Shown here one piece after another: positions 19,891-52,012 of a DNA stretch of 64,000 nt (position 1 is its first letter; each line of letters starts with the position of its first letter). The stretch spans positions 152,283-216,282 of the forward strand of contig NZ_JAAVUP010000003.1 in the NCBI RefSeq assembly GCF_012163135.1, given 5' to 3'. The notes under the pieces were generated by a model. That model made no database searches and had not been told where the DNA came from. It was given only the letters and a program-made list of their open reading frames with translations. The DNA comes from Neoroseomonas oryzicola. Lineage in GTDB: Bacteria > Pseudomonadota > Alphaproteobacteria > Acetobacterales > Acetobacteraceae. A program made the translations under genes and the position numbers.

Positions 19891-19903
19891 GGCTTTCTCC
19901 ATT

Positions 19904-19948
19904 CGTCAGTCTATCTGACGATCACTAGACAGTCTATCTGACGACCTG
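19904..19948. promoter_or_regulatory. Putative MarR operator, two copies of a palindromic motif
   Basis: Between the divergent SnoaL and MarR genes lies CGTCAGTCTATCTGACG (19904-19920), a perfect inverted repeat with six-base arms. A second, slightly imperfect copy (one mismatch per arm region) spans 19928-19944. The 15-mer CAGTCTATCTGACGA occurs exactly at 19907-19921 and 19930-19944. The 23-base spacing, about two helical turns, is typical of two dimers on one DNA face. This is probably the autoregulatory site of the adjacent MarR protein. Confidence 0.75.
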
Positions 19949-28466: not shown

Positions 28467-28580
28467 TTATCCACACGTGCGGGCCGCACGGTCGGAATCA
28501 GGATTTTTCAATGACTTGAATGCCTGATCTGAGGGGGTGCCTGAACTGCCCCGGACTCCTCTTCCCCAGACTTATCCACA
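28467..28580 (+). other. Two perfect DnaA boxes flanking an intergenic spacer
   Basis: TTATCCACA, the consensus DnaA box, occurs at 28467-28475 and again at 28572-28580, both on the plus strand, 105 bases apart. Between them is an AT-richer patch around 28490-28520 with a GAATC site. The second box overlaps the TAA stop of plsC. The rest of the gap shows no gene. It could titrate DnaA or regulate expression, or be chance. Confidence 0.55.
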
Positions 28581-29294
28581 TGTCCTCGGCAGGCCCGCCA
28601 GGCGGTCGCTCTCGCCCTCGATCGCCTGTTCCAGCGCGGCCATCAGCGCGGGTCGCGGCAGCCCCTTGGGCAGCGGCGGCAGGATGGCGACATGGATCGT
28701 CCCGGGGCGCTTGTGGAAGGCCCGCCGCCCCCAGACCAGGCCGCTGTCGGTCGCCACCGGTACCACCGGCGCGCCCGTGGCCGCGGCGAGTGCCACGATC
28801 CCGGGCTGGTAGGGCACCCGTTCGCCCGGCGCGGTGCGCGTGCCCTCGGGGAAGATCACCACCGGGCGGCCCGCCGCCAGCACCGCCTGCGCCGCCCGCA
28901 CCATCGCCTTCAGCGCCGCGCCGCCGCCCTTCCGGTCCACCGGGACATGCCCGCACTTGCTGGCCAGCAGCCCCCAGACCGGGATCGACAGCAATTCCTT
29001 CTTCAGCACGTAGACCGGCGCCCGCAGCAGCATCAGCCAGACCACCGTGTCGAAGGCCGACTGGTGCTTGGCCGCGATCAGCGCCCCGCCCGGTGGCAGG
29101 TTCTCGAGGCCCGTGACCTCGAGCCGGATGCCGCAGAGGATGCGCAGCGCCGCCACCACGGCGCGCGCCCAGGTGCGGACATAGGCGATCATCGCGGCCG
29201 GCGGCGCGAGGAGCAGCGGCAGGGCGAGGATCGCGGCCATCGCGCTCCCGCCGAGGAAGAGCGCGTTGAACAGCGCCGAACGCAGCAGGATCAA
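28572..29294 (-). CDS. plsC: 1-acyl-sn-glycerol-3-phosphate acyltransferase
   Basis: 240 residues. Inner-membrane enzyme that acylates lysophosphatidic acid. Motif I is AKHQSAFD (HxxxxD) near residue 79, motif III is FPEGTRTAPG near residue 153, and VPVDRKGGG (motif II area) and PVVPVATDSG (motif IV area) are in place. N-terminal hydrophobic helix ALFNALFLGGSAMAAILALPLLL. The start is taken as TTG at 29294, which overlaps the ydcF stop (TTGA); an ATG 54 bases further in is an alternative but would cut the first helix. Confidence 0.88.
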   Translation of the reverse strand: MILLRSALFNALFLGGSAMAAILALPLLLAPPAAMIAYVRTWARAVVAALRILCGIRLEVTGLENLPPGGALIAAKHQSAFDTVVWLMLLRAPVYVLKKELLSIPVWGLLASKCGHVPVDRKGGGAALKAMVRAAQAVLAAGRPVVIFPEGTRTAPGERVPYQPGIVALAAATGAPVVPVATDSGLVWGRRAFHKRPGTIHVAILPPLPKGLPRPALMAALEQAIEGESDRLAGLPRTCG

Positions 29295-29920
29295 CTCTCG
29301 CGGGGCTCCCGACCATTGGCGAAGAGGCCGGACAGCCCGGCCTGCGCCGCCACGTAGCGCGCATACTCGCCGATGAGGAGCGCCCAGGATCCCGGCCGCC
29401 ACAGCGCACCGGGCGCCCGCAGCGTTCCCGTCGCCACCGGATGAGCCACCAGGGTGCGGTCCGGCATGGCGCGGCGCAGTTCCAGCATGGCGCGCGGCAT
29501 GTGGTAGGCGGCGGTGACGACGCGGATCGACTTCACGTCCTGGGCCCGCGCCCAGGCCGCCGTCTCGGCCGCGTTGCCGCGGGTGGACGCCGCCGCATGG
29601 CCCACCGTCACGCGCCCCTGCACGGTCGCCGCGTCGACGCCGGCGGCGGTCGCGATCTCCTGCAGCCCCGCCGCCTGGTGCGCGCCCGAGATCAGCATCC
29701 GCTGCGCCCGCCCTTCGCCCAGCAGGCGGAAGCCGGTCGCCACGCGCTCGCCGCCGCCGGTCAGCACCACGATGCCGTCGGTCTCGCCGGCCGGCGGATC
29801 GGCCGCGTCCAGCACGCCGGCGACATAGACGACGAAGCCCGCCATGAAGGCGAGCGCGGGCAGCAGCAGCACCAGCGCGGCGATGCGCCGCTTGCGCGCC
29901 AGCGCGGTTCCCTCGGTCAT
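29291..29920 (-). CDS. YdcF/DUF218 family membrane protein
   Basis: 209 residues. An N-terminal membrane helix (residues about 12-35, IAALVLLLPALAFMAGFVVYVAG) is followed by a DUF218 domain: DGIVVLTGGGERVATGFRLLGEGRAQRMLISGAH, then TRGNAAETAAWARA and VVTAAYHMPRAMLELRRAMPD. DUF218 proteins include ElyC/SanA-like envelope factors, probably acting near the inner membrane on envelope carbohydrate. Its start overlaps the ftsX stop by four bases and its stop overlaps the plsC TTG, so ftsE-ftsX-ydcF-plsC is one transcript. Confidence 0.88.
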   Translation of the reverse strand: MTEGTALARKRRIAALVLLLPALAFMAGFVVYVAGVLDAADPPAGETDGIVVLTGGGERVATGFRLLGEGRAQRMLISGAHQAAGLQEIATAAGVDAATVQGRVTVGHAAASTRGNAAETAAWARAQDVKSIRVVTAAYHMPRAMLELRRAMPDRTLVAHPVATGTLRAPGALWRPGSWALLIGEYARYVAAQAGLSGLFANGREPRES

Positions 29921-35401: not shown

Positions 35402-37270
35402 ATGGATGGGATTTTCGACGTCATCGTCATCGGCGGCGGCCATGCCGGCGCCGAGGCCGCGGCTGCCGCCGCGCGTTGCGGCGCGCGCACCCTGCTGCTG
35501 ACGCACAAGGTCGAGACGCTGGGCGAGATGTCCTGCAACCCAGCCATCGGCGGCGTGGGCAAGGGCCATCTGGTGCGGGAGGTCGATGCCCTGGACGGGA
35601 TCATGGCCCGCGCGGCGGATGCGGCGGCCATCCATGTGAAGATGCTGAACCGGTCGAAGGGCCCGGCCGTGCGTGGTCCGCGGGTCCAGGCCGACCGCGC
35701 GCTCTACCGCCAAGCCGTCCGCGGCCTGCTGGAGGCCCAGCCCGGCCTGACCATCCTCGCCGCCGCCGCCGAGGGCCTCGAGACCGCCCCGGATGGCGGC
35801 ATCGCCGCCGTGCTGACCGGCGACGGCCGCCGCTTCGCCTGCGGCGCCGTCGTGGTCACGACCGGCACCTTCCTGCGCGGCGAGATCCATATCGGGGAGA
35901 AGCGCATCCCCGCCGGCCGGGTCGGCGACGCGCCCGCGATCGGCCTCGCGCTGGCCTTCGAACGGCTGGGGCTGCCACTCGCGCGGCTCAAGACCGGGAC
36001 CCCGCCGCGCCTCGACGGCCGGACCATCGACTGGGACGCGCTCGAAGCCCAGCCCGGCGACGACGACCCCGAGCCGATGTCCTGGATGACCGAGCGGATC
36101 ACCAACCGCCAGGTCGCCTGCGGCATCACCGCCACCACGCCCGAGACCCACGCCCTGATCCGGGCGAACCTGCACCAGAGCGCCGTGTATGGCGGGCGCA
36201 TCCAGGGGGTCGGACCGCGCTACTGCCCGTCCATCGAGGACAAGGTCGTCCGGTTCGCGGAGCGGGAGCGCCACCAGATCTTCCTGGAGCCCGAGGGGCT
36301 GGATGACGACACCGTCTATCCGAACGGCATCTCGACCAGCCTGCCCGAGGACGTGCAGGCGGTGATGATCGCCTCCATCCCGGGCCTGGGCCGGGCGCGG
36401 ATCCTGCGCCCCGGCTACGCCATCGAATACGACCATGTCGACCCGCGGGCGTTGACCCCGGCGCTCGAGGTCCGGGCCGTGCCGCGGCTCTTCCTCGCCG
36501 GCCAGATCAACGGGACCACGGGCTACGAGGAAGCCGCCGCCCAGGGGCTGATGGCCGGCCTCAATGCGGCCGCGCGGGCCGGCGGGGCGACCCCGGACCG
36601 CGTGCTGACGCGCTCCGAGGCTTATGTCGGCGTCCTGGTGGACGACCTGGTCCTGCACGGCGTGTCCGAGCCCTACCGCATGCTGACCGCCCGCGCCGAG
36701 CACCGCCTGGTGCTGCGCGCCGACAATGCCGGGCTGCGCCTGACGGAGAAGGGCATCGCCTGGGGGTGCGTCGGCCCCGAGCGCGCCGCCCGCCACCGCG
36801 CGTTCGCGGCTTCCCTCGCGGACGCCCTCGCCCGTGCCCGCGATGACGGTGCGACACCGTCGGCGCTGGCCGCCGCCGGTGTCGCCGTGAACCAGGACGG
36901 TCGCCGCCGCAACGTGCTGGAGGTCCTGGCCCTGCCCGGCGCCGACCCGGCCCGCATCGATGCCGCCTTTCCCTGGCTGCGCGACCTTGCCCCCGCGCTC
37001 CGCGCGCAGCTCGAGGCCGAAGCCCTTTACGCCCCTTATCTCCGCCGCCAGGAAGCCGAGATGCGCCTGCTGGAGCGCGAGGAGCGCACTCGCATCCCCG
37101 ACGACCTCGACTTCGGCGCCGTCCCGGGCCTGTCCTCCGAGATGCGCCAGCGCCTGACCGCCGCGCGCCCCGCCACCCTCGGTTCCGCTGGCCGTCTGCC
37201 CGGCGTCACCCCGGCGGCCATCGCAGCGCTGGCCGTCGCCCTCCGGCGCGAGGCGGTACGTTCCACGTGA
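35402..37270 (+). CDS. mnmG: tRNA uridine-5-carboxymethylaminomethyl modification enzyme MnmG
   Basis: 622 residues, FAD-dependent partner of MnmE. The N-terminal FAD motif is [21 protein letters not shown] (residues 7-27), followed by the GidA signature [24 protein letters not shown] near residue 43, the second signature around [15 protein letters not shown] near residue 281, [11 protein letters not shown] near residue 370, and the C-terminal helical domain ending [10 protein letters not shown]. Its stop overlaps the rsmG GTG (GTGA). The block mnmE-mnmG-rsmG-parA-parB is the usual one in alphaproteobacteria. Confidence 0.96.
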
Positions 37271-37274
37271 AACA
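37259..37274. other. parS: parS-like centromere site 2
   Basis: CGTTCCACGTGAAACA has the core GTTCCACGTGAAAC, the reverse complement of the core of site 1 at 33989-34004, and differs from the consensus parS TGTTTCACGTGAAACA at two positions. It overlaps the mnmG stop and the GTG start of rsmG, so the site lies inside coding sequence. Confidence 0.78.
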
Positions 37275-37875
37275 TCCAGTTCCGCCCCTCGCAGCCGACC
37301 CCGACCGGGACGCCCGCCTCGCCGCCTATCGAGACCTGCTGCTGCGCTGGAACGCGACCATCAACCTGGTCAGCGCCCGCACCGCCACCGAGGTCGACAG
37401 CCGCCACATCGCCGACAGCCTGCAACTGGTGCCGCTGCTGCCGACGGAAGGCCCGATCGCCGACCTTGGTTCCGGCGGCGGACTGCCCGGCATCGTCATC
37501 GCCGCCGCCCTGCCGGACCGCGAGATCCACCTGGTCGAATCCGACCGTCGCAAGGCCGCCTTCCTGATCGAGGCCGCCGGCACGCTCGGCCTGAAGCAGG
37601 TGAAGATCCACGCCACGCGAATCGAGGCCGCGACCCTCCCGCCGCTCGCTGCCATCACCGCCCGCGCGCTTGCCCCGCTCGATGCGCTGCTGGCCCATGC
37701 GGCGCGATTCCTCGCACCCGGCGGCATCGCGGTCTTCCCCAAGGGCCGCGCCGCCGAGCAGGAGTTGACGAGCGCGTCCGCACACTGGCACTTCACGACG
37801 GAGCGGTTCACGAGCCGCACGGACCCCGAGGCCACCATCCTTCGCCTGAGCGAGATCCGCCGTGCCGGTGACTGA
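37267..37875 (+). CDS. rsmG: 16S rRNA (guanine-N7) methyltransferase RsmG
   Basis: 202 residues, GTG start within parS site 2. Methylates G527 of 16S rRNA with SAM. Visible: [22 protein letters not shown] near residue 33, the SAM motif [16 protein letters not shown] near residue 65, [13 protein letters not shown] near residue 88 and [13 protein letters not shown] near residue 130. It overlaps the parA start by about 14 bases if the first GTG of parA is used. Confidence 0.93.
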
Positions 37876-38674
37876 CCGTCCCCATCTCCGCATCATCGCC
37901 CTGGCCAACCAGAAGGGCGGCGTCGGCAAGACCACCACCGCCATCAACCTCGCCACGGCCCTCGCAACGAAGCGCAAGGTGCTGCTGATCGACATGGACC
38001 CGCAGGGCAACGCCTCGACCGGCCTCGGCGTGCCCCGCCAGGACCGCGGCGCCGGCTCCTACGCGCTGCTGACCGGCGAGAAGCCCCTGCACGACCTGCT
38101 GCGCCCGACCAAGATCCCGAATCTCACCCTGCTGCCCGCCGACCCCGAGCTCGCCGGCGCCGAGATCGAGCTCGTCGGCCTCGAGAACCGCGAACGGCGG
38201 CTGCGGGATGCGCTCGAGGCCCAGGCCGAGGCGCTGGCCGGCACCGAGATCATCCTGATCGACTGCCCGCCCTCGCTCGGCCTGCTGACGCTCAACGCCC
38301 TCGTCGCGTCGCATTCGGTGCTCGTCCCACTGCAGACGGAATTCTTCGCCCTCGAAGGCGTCTCCCAGATCACCCGCACGGTCGAACGCGTCCGCCGCGG
38401 CCTCAACCCGGCGCTCGAGCTCGAAGGCATCGTCCTGACGATGTTCGACAAGCGCAACAACCTGTCCGAGCTCGTCGCCGCCGACGTTCGCGCCTTCTTC
38501 GGGGACAAGGTCTATTCGACCATCATCCCCCGCAATGTCCGCATCAGCGAGGCGCCGTCCCACGGTCTGCCGGTCATCCTCTACGATCACCGCTCGGCCG
38601 GCGCGCAGGCCTATGTCAGCCTCGCCGCCGAGCTCCTGAAGCGCGAACGCAAGGCGAGGAAGTCCGCCGCATGA
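37862..38674 (+). CDS. parA: Chromosome-partitioning ATPase ParA
   Basis: 270 residues. The deviant Walker A motif NQKGGVGKTTTAINLATAL is at residues about 17-35, Walker A' ending in IDMDPQGNASTGLG near residue 42, and Walker B ILIDCPPSLGLLT near residue 132. Short, so of the chromosomal type without an N-terminal HTH. Drives movement of ParB-parS complexes after replication. Starts at GTG (two in-frame GTGs six bases apart). Overlaps parB by four bases (ATGA). Confidence 0.95.
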   Translation: MPVTDRPHLRIIALANQKGGVGKTTTAINLATALATKRKVLLIDMDPQGNASTGLGVPRQDRGAGSYALLTGEKPLHDLLRPTKIPNLTLLPADPELAGAEIELVGLENRERRLRDALEAQAEALAGTEIILIDCPPSLGLLTLNALVASHSVLVPLQTEFFALEGVSQITRTVERVRRGLNPALELEGIVLTMFDKRNNLSELVAADVRAFFGDKVYSTIIPRNVRISEAPSHGLPVILYDHRSAGAQAYVSLAAELLKRERKARKSAA

Positions 38675-39528
38675 AGAAGCCCGCGCGCCTCGGCATGGGG
38701 CTCTCCGCCCTGATGGGCGATGCCGCCGCCCCGCCCGCCGCACCCTCCGGCGCGCCGCGCACCCTGCCGGTCGAATCCCTCGAACCGAGCCCCTTCCAGG
38801 CCCGCTCGACGCCCGATCCCTCCGCGCTTGCCGAGCTCGCCGCCTCGATCAAGGAACACGGCATCCTCCAGCCGATCCTGGTGCGGCCCAAGCCCGGCAC
38901 CGCGGGCAAGTTCCAGATCCTCGGCGGCGAACGCCGCTGGCGCGCCGCACAGCAGGCGAAGCTGCATGACGTCCCGGTCGTCATCCGCGACCTCGACGAC
39001 CGCGCGGCCATGGCCGCGGGCCTGGTCGAGAACCTCCAGCGCGAGGACCTCAACGCGCTCGAGGAAGCCGAGGGCTACCAGCGCCTGATGGGCGAGTTCG
39101 GCCTCAAGCAGGAGAGCCTCGGCCAGGCGGTCGGCAAGTCGCGCAGCCATGTCGCGAACACGCTGCGCCTTCTGAACCTGCCGCCCAAGGTGCGCGACAT
39201 GCTGCGCGGCGGCACGCTCTCGGCCGGTCATGCCCGCGCGCTGCTCGGCGCGCAGGACCCCGAGCGCCTCGCCGCCCTGGTCGCGGTGAAGGGCCTCTCG
39301 GTCCGCCAAACGGAGGCGCTCGCCGCCGCCGCCCCGCGCGACCCCGCCGCCCGCCGCGGCGCGAAGCCGGATGCGGACACGGCCGCGCTGGAACGGCGGC
39401 TGACGGAACGGCTTGGGCTCAAGGTCGGGATCAAGGCGGCGGGGAAGGGCGGCAGCCTCACGATTTCCTATCGCGACCTCGATCAGCTCGACGGGTTGCT
39501 CAGGCTGCTCGATCCGGACATGGCGTAG
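38671..39528 (+). CDS. parB: Chromosome-partitioning protein ParB
   Basis: 285 residues. Binds parS, spreads on DNA and hydrolyses CTP. The N-terminal domain contains VESLEPSPFQAR, KEHGILQPILVR, the arginine patch GGERRWRAAQ near residue 88 and VENLQREDLNALEEAEGYQRL near residue 117. A central HTH follows (LKQESLGQAVGKSRSHVANTLRLLNLP, near residue 150, and LSAGHARALLG). The C-terminal dimerisation domain ends LDGLLRLLDPDMA. It is last in the block and followed by a cluster of hairpins. Confidence 0.95.
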   Translation: MKKPARLGMGLSALMGDAAAPPAAPSGAPRTLPVESLEPSPFQARSTPDPSALAELAASIKEHGILQPILVRPKPGTAGKFQILGGERRWRAAQQAKLHDVPVVIRDLDDRAAMAAGLVENLQREDLNALEEAEGYQRLMGEFGLKQESLGQAVGKSRSHVANTLRLLNLPPKVRDMLRGGTLSAGHARALLGAQDPERLAALVAVKGLSVRQTEALAAAAPRDPAARRGAKPDADTAALERRLTERLGLKVGIKAAGKGGSLTISYRDLDQLDGLLRLLDPDMA

Positions 39529-40146: not shown

Positions 40147-40175
40147 TTCGAATAACTCTTCGTTATTCGAATAAC
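40147..40175. promoter_or_regulatory. Putative TetR operator
   Basis: An inverted repeat TTCGAATAAC (40147-40156) with GTTATTCGAA (40162-40171) overlaps a perfect 14-base palindrome GTTATTCGAATAAC (40162-40175). The site is AT-rich in a GC-rich context and lies 14 bases before the ATG of the TetR gene, as expected for autorepression. Confidence 0.75.
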
Positions 40176-40189
40176 AGCGTGTATCTCCA

Positions 40190-40804
40190 ATGTCCGCCGA
40201 CACCCAGGTCCGCCCCTATCGCCAGGTCGCCCGCGCCGCCGCCACCGAGGAGACGCGCCGGCGCATCGTCGCCGCCTTCGCGGCGGCGCTCGAACGGCTC
40301 TGGCTGGACGAGATCACGCTGGACGACGTCGCAGCCGCCGCCGGGACCACGCGCCAGACCGTGATCCGCCTGTTCGGCGGCAAGGACGGGTTGCTCGCCG
40401 CCGTGGCCGAACGGATGAGCGAGGAGGTAGCGCGTCGCCGCGCCCTGCCGCGCGCTGCGACGCCGCCGGCGATCGCGCGCGCGATCGTCGAGGACTACGA
40501 AGCGAGCGGCGACATGGTCGCCCGGCTGCTGGCGCAGGAAGGCCGGCATCCGGCACTCGGCACCGTCCTTGCGCGCGGCCGCCGCGGGCACCGGGCCTGG
40601 GTCACGGAGGTTTTCGCCGCACCGCTCGCCGCCGCGCCGCAGGCGGCGCGGGAGGCGCTGGTCGACCGGCTCGTCCTCGCCACCGACGTCTACAGCTGGA
40701 AGCTGCTCCGCCGCGACATGGGCCGCAGCCGGTCCGCCACCGAAGCGGCCGTCGCCGACCTCATCGCGGCCATCCTGGCCGAATGGAGTGCCCATCATGG
40801 CTGA
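40190..40804 (+). CDS. TetR family transcriptional regulator
   Basis: 204 residues. The N-terminal HTH comprises TRRRIVAAFAAALERLWLDEITLDDVAAAAGTTRQTVIRLFGGKDGLLAAV (residues about 20-70), the TetR_N signature. The C-terminal ligand-binding domain is helical and degenerate relative to known subfamilies. A perfect palindrome upstream probably binds it. Its stop overlaps the glycosyltransferase start by eight bases, so it likely controls that gene. No ribosome site of note precedes the ATG. Confidence 0.92.
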   Translation: MSADTQVRPYRQVARAAATEETRRRIVAAFAAALERLWLDEITLDDVAAAAGTTRQTVIRLFGGKDGLLAAVAERMSEEVARRRALPRAATPPAIARAIVEDYEASGDMVARLLAQEGRHPALGTVLARGRRGHRAWVTEVFAAPLAAAPQAAREALVDRLVLATDVYSWKLLRRDMGRSRSATEAAVADLIAAILAEWSAHHG

Positions 40805-50654: not shown

Positions 50655-51713
50655 TCAGGCCGAGCGCAGGATCCGCATCAGCGCCGTGACGTGCTCCGGC
50701 GGGGTCTGCGGCACGATCCCATGGCCCAGGTTGAAGATGTAGGGGCGGCCCTTCATGGCGGCGAGGATCGACCGCGTCTCGGCTTCCAGCGCCGCGCCGC
50801 CGGCGACCAGCGCGAGGGGATCGAGGTTGCCCTGCAGCGCCATGGTCGCCGGCACGGCCTGGGCCGCCCAGCGCGGGTCCATCGAGGTGTCCATCGCCGT
50901 CGCGTCCACCCCGGCGCGCGCCGCGTAGTCCGCCAGCAACGGTCCCGCCAGGCGCGGGAAGCCGATGATCGGGATCCCGGGGCAGCGACGCCGCAGGTTG
51001 CGCGTGATGGAGGCCGTCGGCTCGATCACCCAGCGCCGGAACTGGCCCGGCGAGAGCATCCCCGCCCAGGAATCGAACAGCATCAGTGCCTCGGCCCCGG
51101 CCTCGACCTGGGCCACCAGGTATTCCGTGGTCGCGTCCTGCAGCGTGCGGATCAGCCGCCCGAACAGCGCCGGGTCGGCATAGGCGAGGCCGCGAGCCGC
51201 CGGGAACTCCTTGCTGCCCTTTCCCTCGAGCATGTAGCAGGCGACCGTGAAGCAGCCGCCGGCGAAGCCGATCAGCGTGGTCCGCGGCGCCTCGGCCGCG
51301 AGCCCGGCGCGCACGCGGGAGACGGTCTCCATCACCGGTGCCGCCCGCGCCACGACGACCGAGGGGTCGAGTGCCGCGATCGCCTCGGCCGTGCGCAGCG
51401 GTTCCAGCAGCGGGCCTTCCCCTTCCGCGAAGCGGAGCGGCTGCCCGAGCGCCCAGGGGATCATCAGGATGTCCGAGAACAGGATGGCGGCTTCCATCCC
51501 GTAGCGGCGGATTGGCTGGAGCGTCACCTCCGCCGCCAGCTCGGGCGTGGTGCACAGGGCGATGAAATCGCCTGCCTGCGCGCGGACCTCGCGGTATTCG
51601 GGCAGGTAGCGCCCGGCCTGGCGCATCAGCCAGGCAGGGGGTGGCCAGACGGCCTCCCCCGCAAGGGCGCGCAGAAGGGGCTTGGCCGGCACGGCGGGAC
51701 GTTCGCTCTCCAT
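50655..51713 (-). CDS. hemE: Uroporphyrinogen decarboxylase
   Basis: 352 residues. Decarboxylates uroporphyrinogen III to coproporphyrinogen III. The signature PPAWLMRQAGRYLPEYREVR (residues about 26-45) contains the substrate-binding arginines; later SDILMIPWALGQPLRF near residue 83 with the catalytic Asp, GFAGGCFTVACYMLEGKGS near residue 148, and the C-terminal FNLGHGIVPQTPPEHV near residue 330. AAGGGTAGG precedes the ATG. In many alphaproteobacteria hemE borders the replication origin; the gap upstream of it here fits that. Confidence 0.96.
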   Translation of the reverse strand: MESERPAVPAKPLLRALAGEAVWPPPAWLMRQAGRYLPEYREVRAQAGDFIALCTTPELAAEVTLQPIRRYGMEAAILFSDILMIPWALGQPLRFAEGEGPLLEPLRTAEAIAALDPSVVVARAAPVMETVSRVRAGLAAEAPRTTLIGFAGGCFTVACYMLEGKGSKEFPAARGLAYADPALFGRLIRTLQDATTEYLVAQVEAGAEALMLFDSWAGMLSPGQFRRWVIEPTASITRNLRRRCPGIPIIGFPRLAGPLLADYAARAGVDATAMDTSMDPRWAAQAVPATMALQGNLDPLALVAGGAALEAETRSILAAMKGRPYIFNLGHGIVPQTPPEHVTALMRILRSA

Positions 51714-52012
51714 CGCCTACCCTTCGCAAAGAAAAAGGATTCTAGGAAGTGATAGAGGCTTGTTGGGCCTGTGGATGACGGGGATGCAGGTGATCCGGCG
51801 TCGTCCCACAGACCTTTCCACAGGGTCCGGGGGGCCTCCTCGGCTGGCGGGACGGGGCATTGGCCGACCTGTCCACGATTCCGGCAAAGTTTTCGGGAGA
51901 ACCGTCCGGCGCTGCCCGAAGGCGTGCCCGTCGTGCAGGGCTTCCCCAGGCAGGCGTCCCGGGCTGGAATCCACCCCCGTTATCCACACGGATTCACGCT
52001 ATCCTTCCCGCG
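51714..52012. other. oriC: Candidate chromosomal replication origin (oriC) between hemE and ppsR
   Basis: 299 bases without a gene between divergent hemE and ppsR, the place of oriC in Caulobacter and other alphaproteobacteria. It has a perfect DnaA box TTATCCACA at 51980-51988, a one-mismatch box on the minus strand at 51770-51778 (TGTGGATGA) and a two-mismatch box CTTTCCACA at 51814-51822. Four GANTC methylation sites lie at 51738, 51877, 51967 and 51991. The stretch 51725-51762 is clearly AT-richer than its surroundings and could be the unwinding element. No ORF or RNA gene is seen. Confidence 0.72.

What the first reader, a model, noticed from the sequence alone, without database searches (positions are those of the whole stretch)
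51714..52012. Probable chromosome origin between hemE and ppsR
The gap between divergent hemE and ppsR is the known oriC location in Caulobacter and other alphaproteobacteria. Seen here: one perfect DnaA box (51980-51988), weaker ones at 51770-51778 and 51814-51822, four GANTC sites in 299 bases and an AT-richer stretch at 51725-51762. parAB and two parS-like sites lie 12-18 kb away, as expected near an origin. The gap is short, with few strong boxes, so the true origin could need boxes with a lineage-specific consensus.
Basis: partly seen in the sequence, partly recalled or inferred. Interest (0 to 1): 0.75.

Follow-up and report, generated by a model that had tools for sequence, protein, structure and literature searches.

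The report
Replication origin beside hemE, plus companion
The short gap between hemE and ppsR is very probably where this Neoroseomonas-like bacterium starts copying its chromosome, as in Caulobacter, and the same window also holds a second conserved binding site for the starter protein DnaA that looks like a control element.

Summary
The 299-bp gap has one perfect DnaA box, two weaker ones, four GANTC sites and the second least stable DNA in the window. The genome is a Neoroseomonas-like acetobacterium. In relatives the gap keeps boxes at fixed places and nearly fixed length (295-303 bp in 29 congeners). In 72 named loci, boxes are about 200 times denser in the gap than in flanking DNA. Caulobacter's proven origin lies between the same two genes (passages of PMC1914354). 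Strand asymmetry in complete relatives is mixed: it favours the gap on two of three measures in G109 and is ambiguous elsewhere. Best reading: oriC (0.85), a new member of a known kind, without evident CtrA or IHF sites.

The pair is conserved, but lies 1.4 Mb from hemE in G109 and is absent beside plsC in 9 of 26 congeners that all keep hemE-gap boxes. So it is probably not the origin. Its layout resembles E. coli datA; I know of no such site in alphaproteobacteria (recalled). It is the more interesting lead.

The parts
51714..52012 (.). hemE-ppsR intergenic gap, proposed oriC
   Evidence: conserved length and boxes; same gene pair flanks Caulobacter Cori (PMC1914354, passages)
51717..51756 (.). 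low-stability AT-richer stretch, candidate unwinding element
   Evidence: second least stable separate 40-bp stretch of the 64-kb window
51770..51778 (-). DnaA box TCATCCACA, conserved left box
   Evidence: column conservation 0.93 in 29 congeneric gaps
51814..51822 (+). weak DnaA box CTTTCCACA (TTGTCCACA is the column consensus in congeners)
51869..51877 (+). degenerate box CTGTCCACG at a place where some relatives have TTGTCCACA or TTCTCCACA
51980..51988 (+). perfect DnaA box TTATCCACA, conserved right box
   Evidence: column conservation 0.93
51738..51742 (.). GANTC site (further ones at 51877, 51967, 51991)
50655..51713 (-). hemE, uroporphyrinogen decarboxylase
   Evidence: PF01208
52013..52909 (+). 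ppsR / DUF299 / COG1806 family kinase-pyrophosphorylase
   Evidence: PF03618 and NF003742
28467..28580 (+). companion element: two perfect DnaA boxes 105 bp apart with an IHF-like site between
28467..28475 (+). left DnaA box of the companion element
28506..28518 (+). IHF-like site TTTCAATGACTTG (1 mismatch to WATCAANNNNTTR, consensus recalled)
   Evidence: the well conserved columns are among those fixed in the IHF consensus
28564..28580 (+). CCCCAGAC followed by the right DnaA box TTATCCACA, best conserved part
28572..29402 (-). plsC-like acyltransferase whose stop codon lies in the right box
   Evidence: PF01553
27820..28431 (+). chaC-like gamma-glutamylcyclotransferase, convergent with plsC
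   Evidence: PF04752
33989..34004 (.). parS-like site
   Evidence: 1 mismatch
37259..37274 (.). parS-like site
   Evidence: 2 mismatches
37862..39528 (+). parA and parB

Best explanation
The hemE-ppsR gap is the chromosomal replication origin (oriC). DnaA binds the right-hand box (51980) and the inward-facing left box (51770), with weaker sites between as helpers. The filament then melts the AT-richer stretch next to hemE (51717-51756) and helicase is loaded there. Shown here: the sites, their conservation, the near-fixed gap length, the low predicted duplex stability, and partial strand-asymmetry support in relatives. Inferred: DnaA binding, the side of melting, and control by GANTC methylation. 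A separate conserved element at the plsC 3' end (28467-28580) most likely binds DnaA and IHF as a control or titration site and is not itself the origin. Its function is inferred only.
For: Same flanking genes as the experimentally located Caulobacter origin (PMC1914354, passages). Boxes within 1 mismatch: 4.79 per kb in the gap against 0.024 per kb in the rest of the same 72 named loci, at least one in 63 of 72 gaps. 83 of 88 distinct gaps have at least two TCCACA cores, mean 2.95 against 0.13 expected. Gap length is 295-303 bp in the 29 congeneric gaps although the middle diverges. Of 26 congeners with both loci read, 26 have a box in the hemE gap and 17 have one beside plsC. G109 (one contig), antipodal scan on 17 of the 20 blocks fetched: hemE ranks 5 of 169 on GC skew and 11 of 169 on AT skew, plsC 126 and 135. 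G010 (one contig, 40 blocks): GGGNAGGG strand bias puts hemE, and equally plsC, in the best-scoring interval. In 400 kb of G010 and 400 kb of G021 only the hemE gap and the plsC gap have three cores in 300 bp. In two of three complete genomes of other families (G043, G048) a perfect box (of 15 and 4 in the genome) lies about 300-325 bp upstream of hemE (searches compared; ppsR adjacency not checked there).
Against: Few strong boxes; 9 of 72 named gaps have none within one mismatch. No IHF-like site within 1 mismatch in the 29 congeneric gaps, and CtrA-like sites in only 2 of 29, unlike Caulobacter. G010: local cumulative skew turns at about 5.40 Mb, 60 kb past hemE, and the antipodal GC scan is best at 5.10-5.22 Mb with hemE and plsC both at rank 28 of 275. 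G109: GGGNAGGG bias is best at 2.2-2.5 Mb and ranks hemE 65 and plsC 78 of 169. G126, read in only 20 blocks of 3 kb: GC skew is best at 3.72-3.84 Mb, close to hemE at 3.874 Mb, but hemE itself ranks 58 of 196 (plsC 167), and AT skew ranks hemE 168 and plsC 18. G046, the third complete genome of another family, has its only perfect box far from hemE. G021 and Belnapia F-4-1 skews were uninformative. No binding, unwinding or copy-number data exist here.
Confidence: 0.85

Rival explanations
1. The true origin is the plsC-chaC element at 28467-28580: two perfect boxes bent together by IHF, with AT-rich DNA between them, while the hemE gap is a relic or a DnaA-regulated promoter region.
For: Two of the genome's four perfect boxes; spacing of exactly 105 bp kept in 13 congeneric loci besides the window's own, counting one whose left box has two mismatches; fourth least stable separate stretch of the window; only 5.4 kb from the nearer parS-like site; conserved beyond the genus; G126 AT skew ranks plsC 18 of 196.
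Against: Missing beside plsC in 9 of 26 congeners that all keep hemE-gap boxes, though it could have moved; in G109 it lies at 3.03 Mb, ranking 126 and 135 of 169 for GC and AT skew; in G126 plsC is at 2.255 Mb and the listed GGGNAGGGC forward sites fall from 44 between 1.0 and 2.05 Mb to 12 between 2.05 and 2.99 Mb, as expected past a terminus (a list of 100 of 187 places).
Confidence: 0.07
2. The hemE gap is only a shared regulatory region: DnaA boxes control divergent transcription of hemE and ppsR and have no origin function.
For: Boxes sit 57-65 bp from the hemE start and about 25 bp from the ppsR start; [quoted passage not shown]
Against: Near-fixed total length with a divergent middle; Caulobacter origin between the same genes; GC and AT skew in G109.
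Confidence: 0.05
3. Both loci are active origins, or the plsC element is a backup origin.
For: Both have boxes and low-stability DNA.
Against: No element beside plsC in 9 of 26 congeners; plsC far from the GC and AT skew turn in G109.
Confidence: 0.03

Closest known systems
Cori, the chromosome origin of Caulobacter crescentus
   Same: Lies between hemE and the COG1806/DUF299 gene, contains DnaA boxes and an AT-rich stretch (PMC1914354, passages); GANTC sites in the origin (recalled). A box with T to G substitution is called a G-box there (PMC4468827, passages); TGATCCACA occurs at the left box in some congeners.
   Different: Gap of about 300 bp; no evident CtrA or IHF sites.
Rickettsia prowazekii origin (hemE - COG1806)
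   Same: Same flanking genes (PMC1914354, passages).
   Different: CtrA and IHF sites are reported there (title of a cited paper seen, not read).
E. coli datA (for the plsC companion element)
   Same: Intergenic, one IHF site with essential DnaA boxes at set spacings, near the origin; IHF bending is thought to bring DnaA on boxes 2 and 3 together (PMC10950094 and PMC10380432, passages). In this genus the element is 23-154 kb from hemE.
   Different: Two conserved boxes rather than three essential and one stimulatory; 1.4 Mb from hemE in G109; no activity data; no sequence comparison with datA made.
E. coli DARS1/DARS2
   Same: DnaA boxes in a non-coding control locus.
   Different: DARS has a core of boxes I-III (PMC10380432, passages); here two boxes in direct orientation.

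Membership tests
DnaA-dependent bacterial oriC | cluster of DnaA boxes above chance and conserved | tested here: met
DnaA-dependent bacterial oriC | low-stability DNA unwinding element beside the boxes | tested here: met
   (sequence prediction only)
DnaA-dependent bacterial oriC | lies at the turn of strand asymmetry | tested here: inconclusive
   G109: for on GC and AT skew, not on GGGNAGGG; G010: GGGNAGGG rank 1, GC rank 28 of 275, same for plsC; G126 mixed
DnaA-dependent bacterial oriC | replication starts there / autonomous replication | not testable with these tools
   needs marker frequency or plasmid assay
hemE-COG1806 type alphaproteobacterial origin | flanked by hemE and the DUF299 gene | tested here: met
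   literature
CtrA- and IHF-controlled Cori subtype | CtrA sites (TTAA-N7-TTAA, recalled) | tested here: not met
   2 of 29 congeneric gaps within 1 mismatch; none in the window gap
CtrA- and IHF-controlled Cori subtype | IHF site in the origin | tested here: not met
   0 of 29 gaps within 1 mismatch
datA (for the plsC element) | IHF site between DnaA boxes | tested here: met
   present within 1 mismatch in the window element and in 9 of 17 congeneric elements, window included, at the same offset; 11 sites against 0.8 expected; 8 of 17 lack it at that stringency
datA (for the plsC element) | at least three essential DnaA boxes | tested here: not met
   two conserved boxes in the element
datA (for the plsC element) | stimulates ATP hydrolysis by DnaA | not testable with these tools
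   biochemical assay needed
DARS (for the plsC element) | core of DnaA boxes I-III | tested here: not met
   two boxes only, same orientation

The most novel reading that the evidence does not exclude
Acetobacteraceae carry, besides oriC at hemE, a second dedicated DnaA control locus at the plsC 3' end. Two DnaA boxes (105 bp, ten helical turns, apart in much of Neoroseomonas; about 100-310 bp, most often 225-275, in other genera) are folded together by IHF and either inactivate, reactivate or titrate DnaA. It would be the first datA-like element in alphaproteobacteria that I know of, evolved apart from that of E. coli.
Probability: 0.4. Interest if true: 0.7.

Novelty: new member of a known kind. 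Interest (0 to 1): 0.5.

Why it matters
It gives a concrete, testable origin sequence for a family for which the rows I saw of five searches of the held library showed no origin study by title (10-15 rows each of 62 to 1,012 matching papers, none of the acetic acid bacteria papers opened). It suggests an origin at the Caulobacter-type locus without evident CtrA or IHF sites. It also brings up a conserved DnaA-IHF-DnaA element that would let one ask whether alphaproteobacteria control DnaA through a chromosomal locus, as E. coli does with datA and DARS.

Tried and rejected
A free two-breakpoint fit of the G010 skew gave a meaningless solution (origin 3.04 Mb, terminus 2.36 Mb) because it allowed an arbitrary constant; I used an antipodal scan instead. 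Belnapia F-4-1 skew (20 blocks) swings too much to use. G021 skew over 400 kb has several local minima, the deepest near 180 kb, away from both loci. The hypothesis that the plsC element is the origin was taken seriously and set aside on the GC and AT skew of G109, on its absence beside plsC in 9 of 26 congeners, and on its varying distance from hemE: 23-154 kb in the nine element-bearing congeners with both on one contig.

The pattern CCCCAGRYTTNTCCACA was found in 17 of 299 family genomes. Of the 18 places, 6 are beside plsC (three of them G000, G021, G010), 2 beside hemE and ppsR, and 10 near neither within 1.5 kb. It is too strict to map the element's spread. Strong 8-mer strand bias in G010 (CTGACCAC, ACGCAGGT) proved to come from one 20-kb block and was dropped. 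Paper searches with 'datA' also matched the word 'data' and are weak evidence of absence.

Full report
WHAT IS THERE. The gap 51714-52012 lies between divergent hemE (PF01208) and ppsR (PF03618; DUF299/COG1806). It holds TTATCCACA at 51980 (+), TCATCCACA at 51770 (-) and CTTTCCACA at 51814 (+), and GANTC at 51738, 51877, 51967 and 51991. The core TCCACA/TGTGGA is found 3 times against 0.09 in shuffles (P about 0.0002); GANTC 4 against 1.3 (P about 0.035). The 40 bp from 51717 are the second least stable separate stretch of the window. The whole genome (5.3 Mb, 52 contigs) has only four perfect TTATCCACA, three of them in this window.

WHOSE GENOME. HemE is 98% identical to that of Neoroseomonas marina, so the window is from a Neoroseomonas-like member of the Acetobacteraceae.

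CONSERVATION OF THE GAP. I fetched 110 hemE loci: 30 from the genome search and 80 named ones, the best 80 of 451. In 102 of them both hemE and ppsR were found and oriented; 8 lacked ppsR in the stretch. After removing identical gaps and one gap over 600 bp, 88 distinct gaps remain. In the 29 congeneric gaps the length is 295-303 bp, although the middle is hardly alignable. Column conservation is 0.93 at the left box and 0.93 at the right box, against 0.66 for the gap as a whole and 0.59 in the middle. Among 72 named loci with a gap under 600 bp, boxes within one mismatch number 113 in the gaps (4.79 per kb) and 30 in all the remaining DNA (0.024 per kb); 63 of 72 gaps have at least one and 9 have none. 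GANTC averages 4.5 per gap against 1.5 expected over the 88 gaps.

ABSENT FEATURES. No IHF-like site (WATCAANNNNTTR, recalled consensus) within one mismatch in the 29 congeneric gaps, and CtrA-like sites (TTAA-N7-TTAA, recalled) in only 2 of 29. [quoted passage not shown]

LITERATURE. PMC1914354 (passages) states that the experimentally located Caulobacter origin lies between hemE and the COG1806 gene with DUF299, and that Rickettsia prowazekii has the same arrangement. It also reports that GC skew was insufficient to predict the origin in several alphaproteobacteria. Five searches for origins in Acetobacteraceae, Roseomonas, Gluconobacter or Rhodospirillales showed none by title in the rows listed (15 of 62, 10 of 73, 10 of 1,012, 10 of 222 and 12 of 831 papers). 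I opened none of the acetic acid bacteria papers listed, and most subscription papers are not held.

THE RIVAL IN THE WINDOW. At 28467 and 28572, between convergent chaC and plsC, two perfect boxes stand 105 bp apart, the only direct pair of perfect boxes in the genome with a spacer of 90-115 bp. Of 30 congeneric plsC loci fetched (of 34 genomes with a match), 17 carry boxes at this place: 14 with 105-bp spacing (the left box weaker in several, beyond one mismatch in L163) and 3 with 103-104 bp. Thirteen of 30 have none within one mismatch in the 400 bp. The distance to chaC varies from 121 to 904 bp in the 13 loci where chaC was found, while the box spacing stays nearly fixed. In the 17 elements, which were picked for having the two cores, CCCCAGAC plus the right box (0.94-0.96) and the left box (0.92) are best conserved. 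Not part of that selection: CCCCAGAC, and an IHF-like site at a constant offset, within one mismatch in 9 of 17 elements (11 hits on both strands against 0.8 expected). Five of its columns reach 0.88-1.0, all among those fixed in the IHF consensus, and the four free positions vary (0.29-0.53); one fixed column is only 0.53. The genome encodes IHF alpha and beta.

BEYOND THE GENUS. In the 28 loci whose PlsC is most similar to the window's (of 149 genomes with a match among 160), 23 have at least one box and 16 at least two between -60 and +400 of the plsC stop. With four further loci (three of them chosen by the box pattern itself) the density is 3.67 per kb against 0.035 elsewhere in the same loci. 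IHF-like sites occur in 16 of 35 such loci, 17 sites against 3.4 expected. In G126 the two boxes are degenerate (TTATCCCCA, TTACCCACA) with a perfect IHF consensus between.

WHICH ONE IS THE ORIGIN. Of 26 congeners with both loci read, 26 have a box in the hemE gap and 17 have one at plsC. In G109 (one contig, 3.37 Mb) the loci are 1.42 Mb apart. GC and AT skew change sign near 1.4-1.5 Mb. In an antipodal scan on 17 of the 20 blocks, hemE (1.606 Mb) ranks 5 and 11 of 169 and plsC 126 and 135. Against this, GGGNAGGG (KOPS-like, recalled) in the same genome scores best at 2.2-2.5 Mb, with hemE rank 65 and plsC 78.

In G126 the loci are 1.62 Mb apart. From 20 blocks of 3 kb GC skew is best at 3.72-3.84 Mb (hemE at 3.874 ranks 58 of 196, plsC 167), while AT skew says the opposite (plsC 18, hemE 168). 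A truncated motif list (100 of 187 places) has 44 forward sites from 1.0 to 2.05 Mb and 12 from 2.05 to 2.99 Mb, which suggests a terminus near 2.05 Mb, close to plsC.

In G010 (one contig) the terminus by GGGNAGGG lies between 2.48 and 2.61 Mb, so the origin is expected near 5.22-5.35 Mb. hemE (5.339) and plsC (5.255) both fit and both rank 1. By GC skew both rank 28 of 275, with the best interval at 5.10-5.22 Mb, and the local cumulative minimum is at about 5.40 Mb. In 400 kb of G010 and 400 kb of G021 only these two places have three cores within 300 bp. Of three complete genomes of other families, two have a perfect box about 300-325 bp upstream of hemE and one (G046) does not. In G164 the record starts about 2.7 kb from the boxes of the hemE-ppsR gap, which may reflect the depositor's choice of zero.

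MECHANISM. By analogy with known origins, DnaA would load on the strong right box and the inward left box and melt the AT-richer DNA beside hemE. This is inference. For the plsC element, the layout of DnaA box, IHF site, DnaA box resembles E. coli datA, where IHF bending is thought to bring DnaA on boxes 2 and 3 together to promote ATP hydrolysis (PMC10950094 and PMC10380432, passages). datA needs three boxes and this element has two, so I do not file it as datA; that it works like datA is a hypothesis. PMC4451416 (passages) reports DARS from a number of gammaproteobacteria.

VERDICT. The companion element at plsC is the less expected finding and deserves its own study.

Noticed in passing
window 28467-28580: Conserved pair of perfect DnaA boxes 105 bp apart with an IHF-like site between, at the plsC 3' end; discussed in the report as a companion element.
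   Followed up: partly
   Followed up: no
L150 (G010:C1:5362501-5382500): 56-57 copies, nearly all on one strand, of 8-mers CTGACCAC and ACGCAGGT in one 20-kb block near the proposed origin of a congener, probably a repeat array.
   Followed up: no
window 40151-40190 and 19901-19940: The least stable and third least stable separate 40-bp stretches of the window lie here, away from the DnaA boxes within one mismatch; not identified.
   Followed up: no
L201 and L202 (unnamed genus g121): The plsC-side element is AT-rich and origin-like here (AT-rich core flanked by several DnaA boxes), most strikingly in L201.
   Followed up: partly
L207 and L208 (unnamed genus g45): CCCCAGACTTATCCACA beside AT-rich DNA at a place without plsC or hemE found within 1.5 kb, perhaps a relocated copy of the element.
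   Followed up: partly
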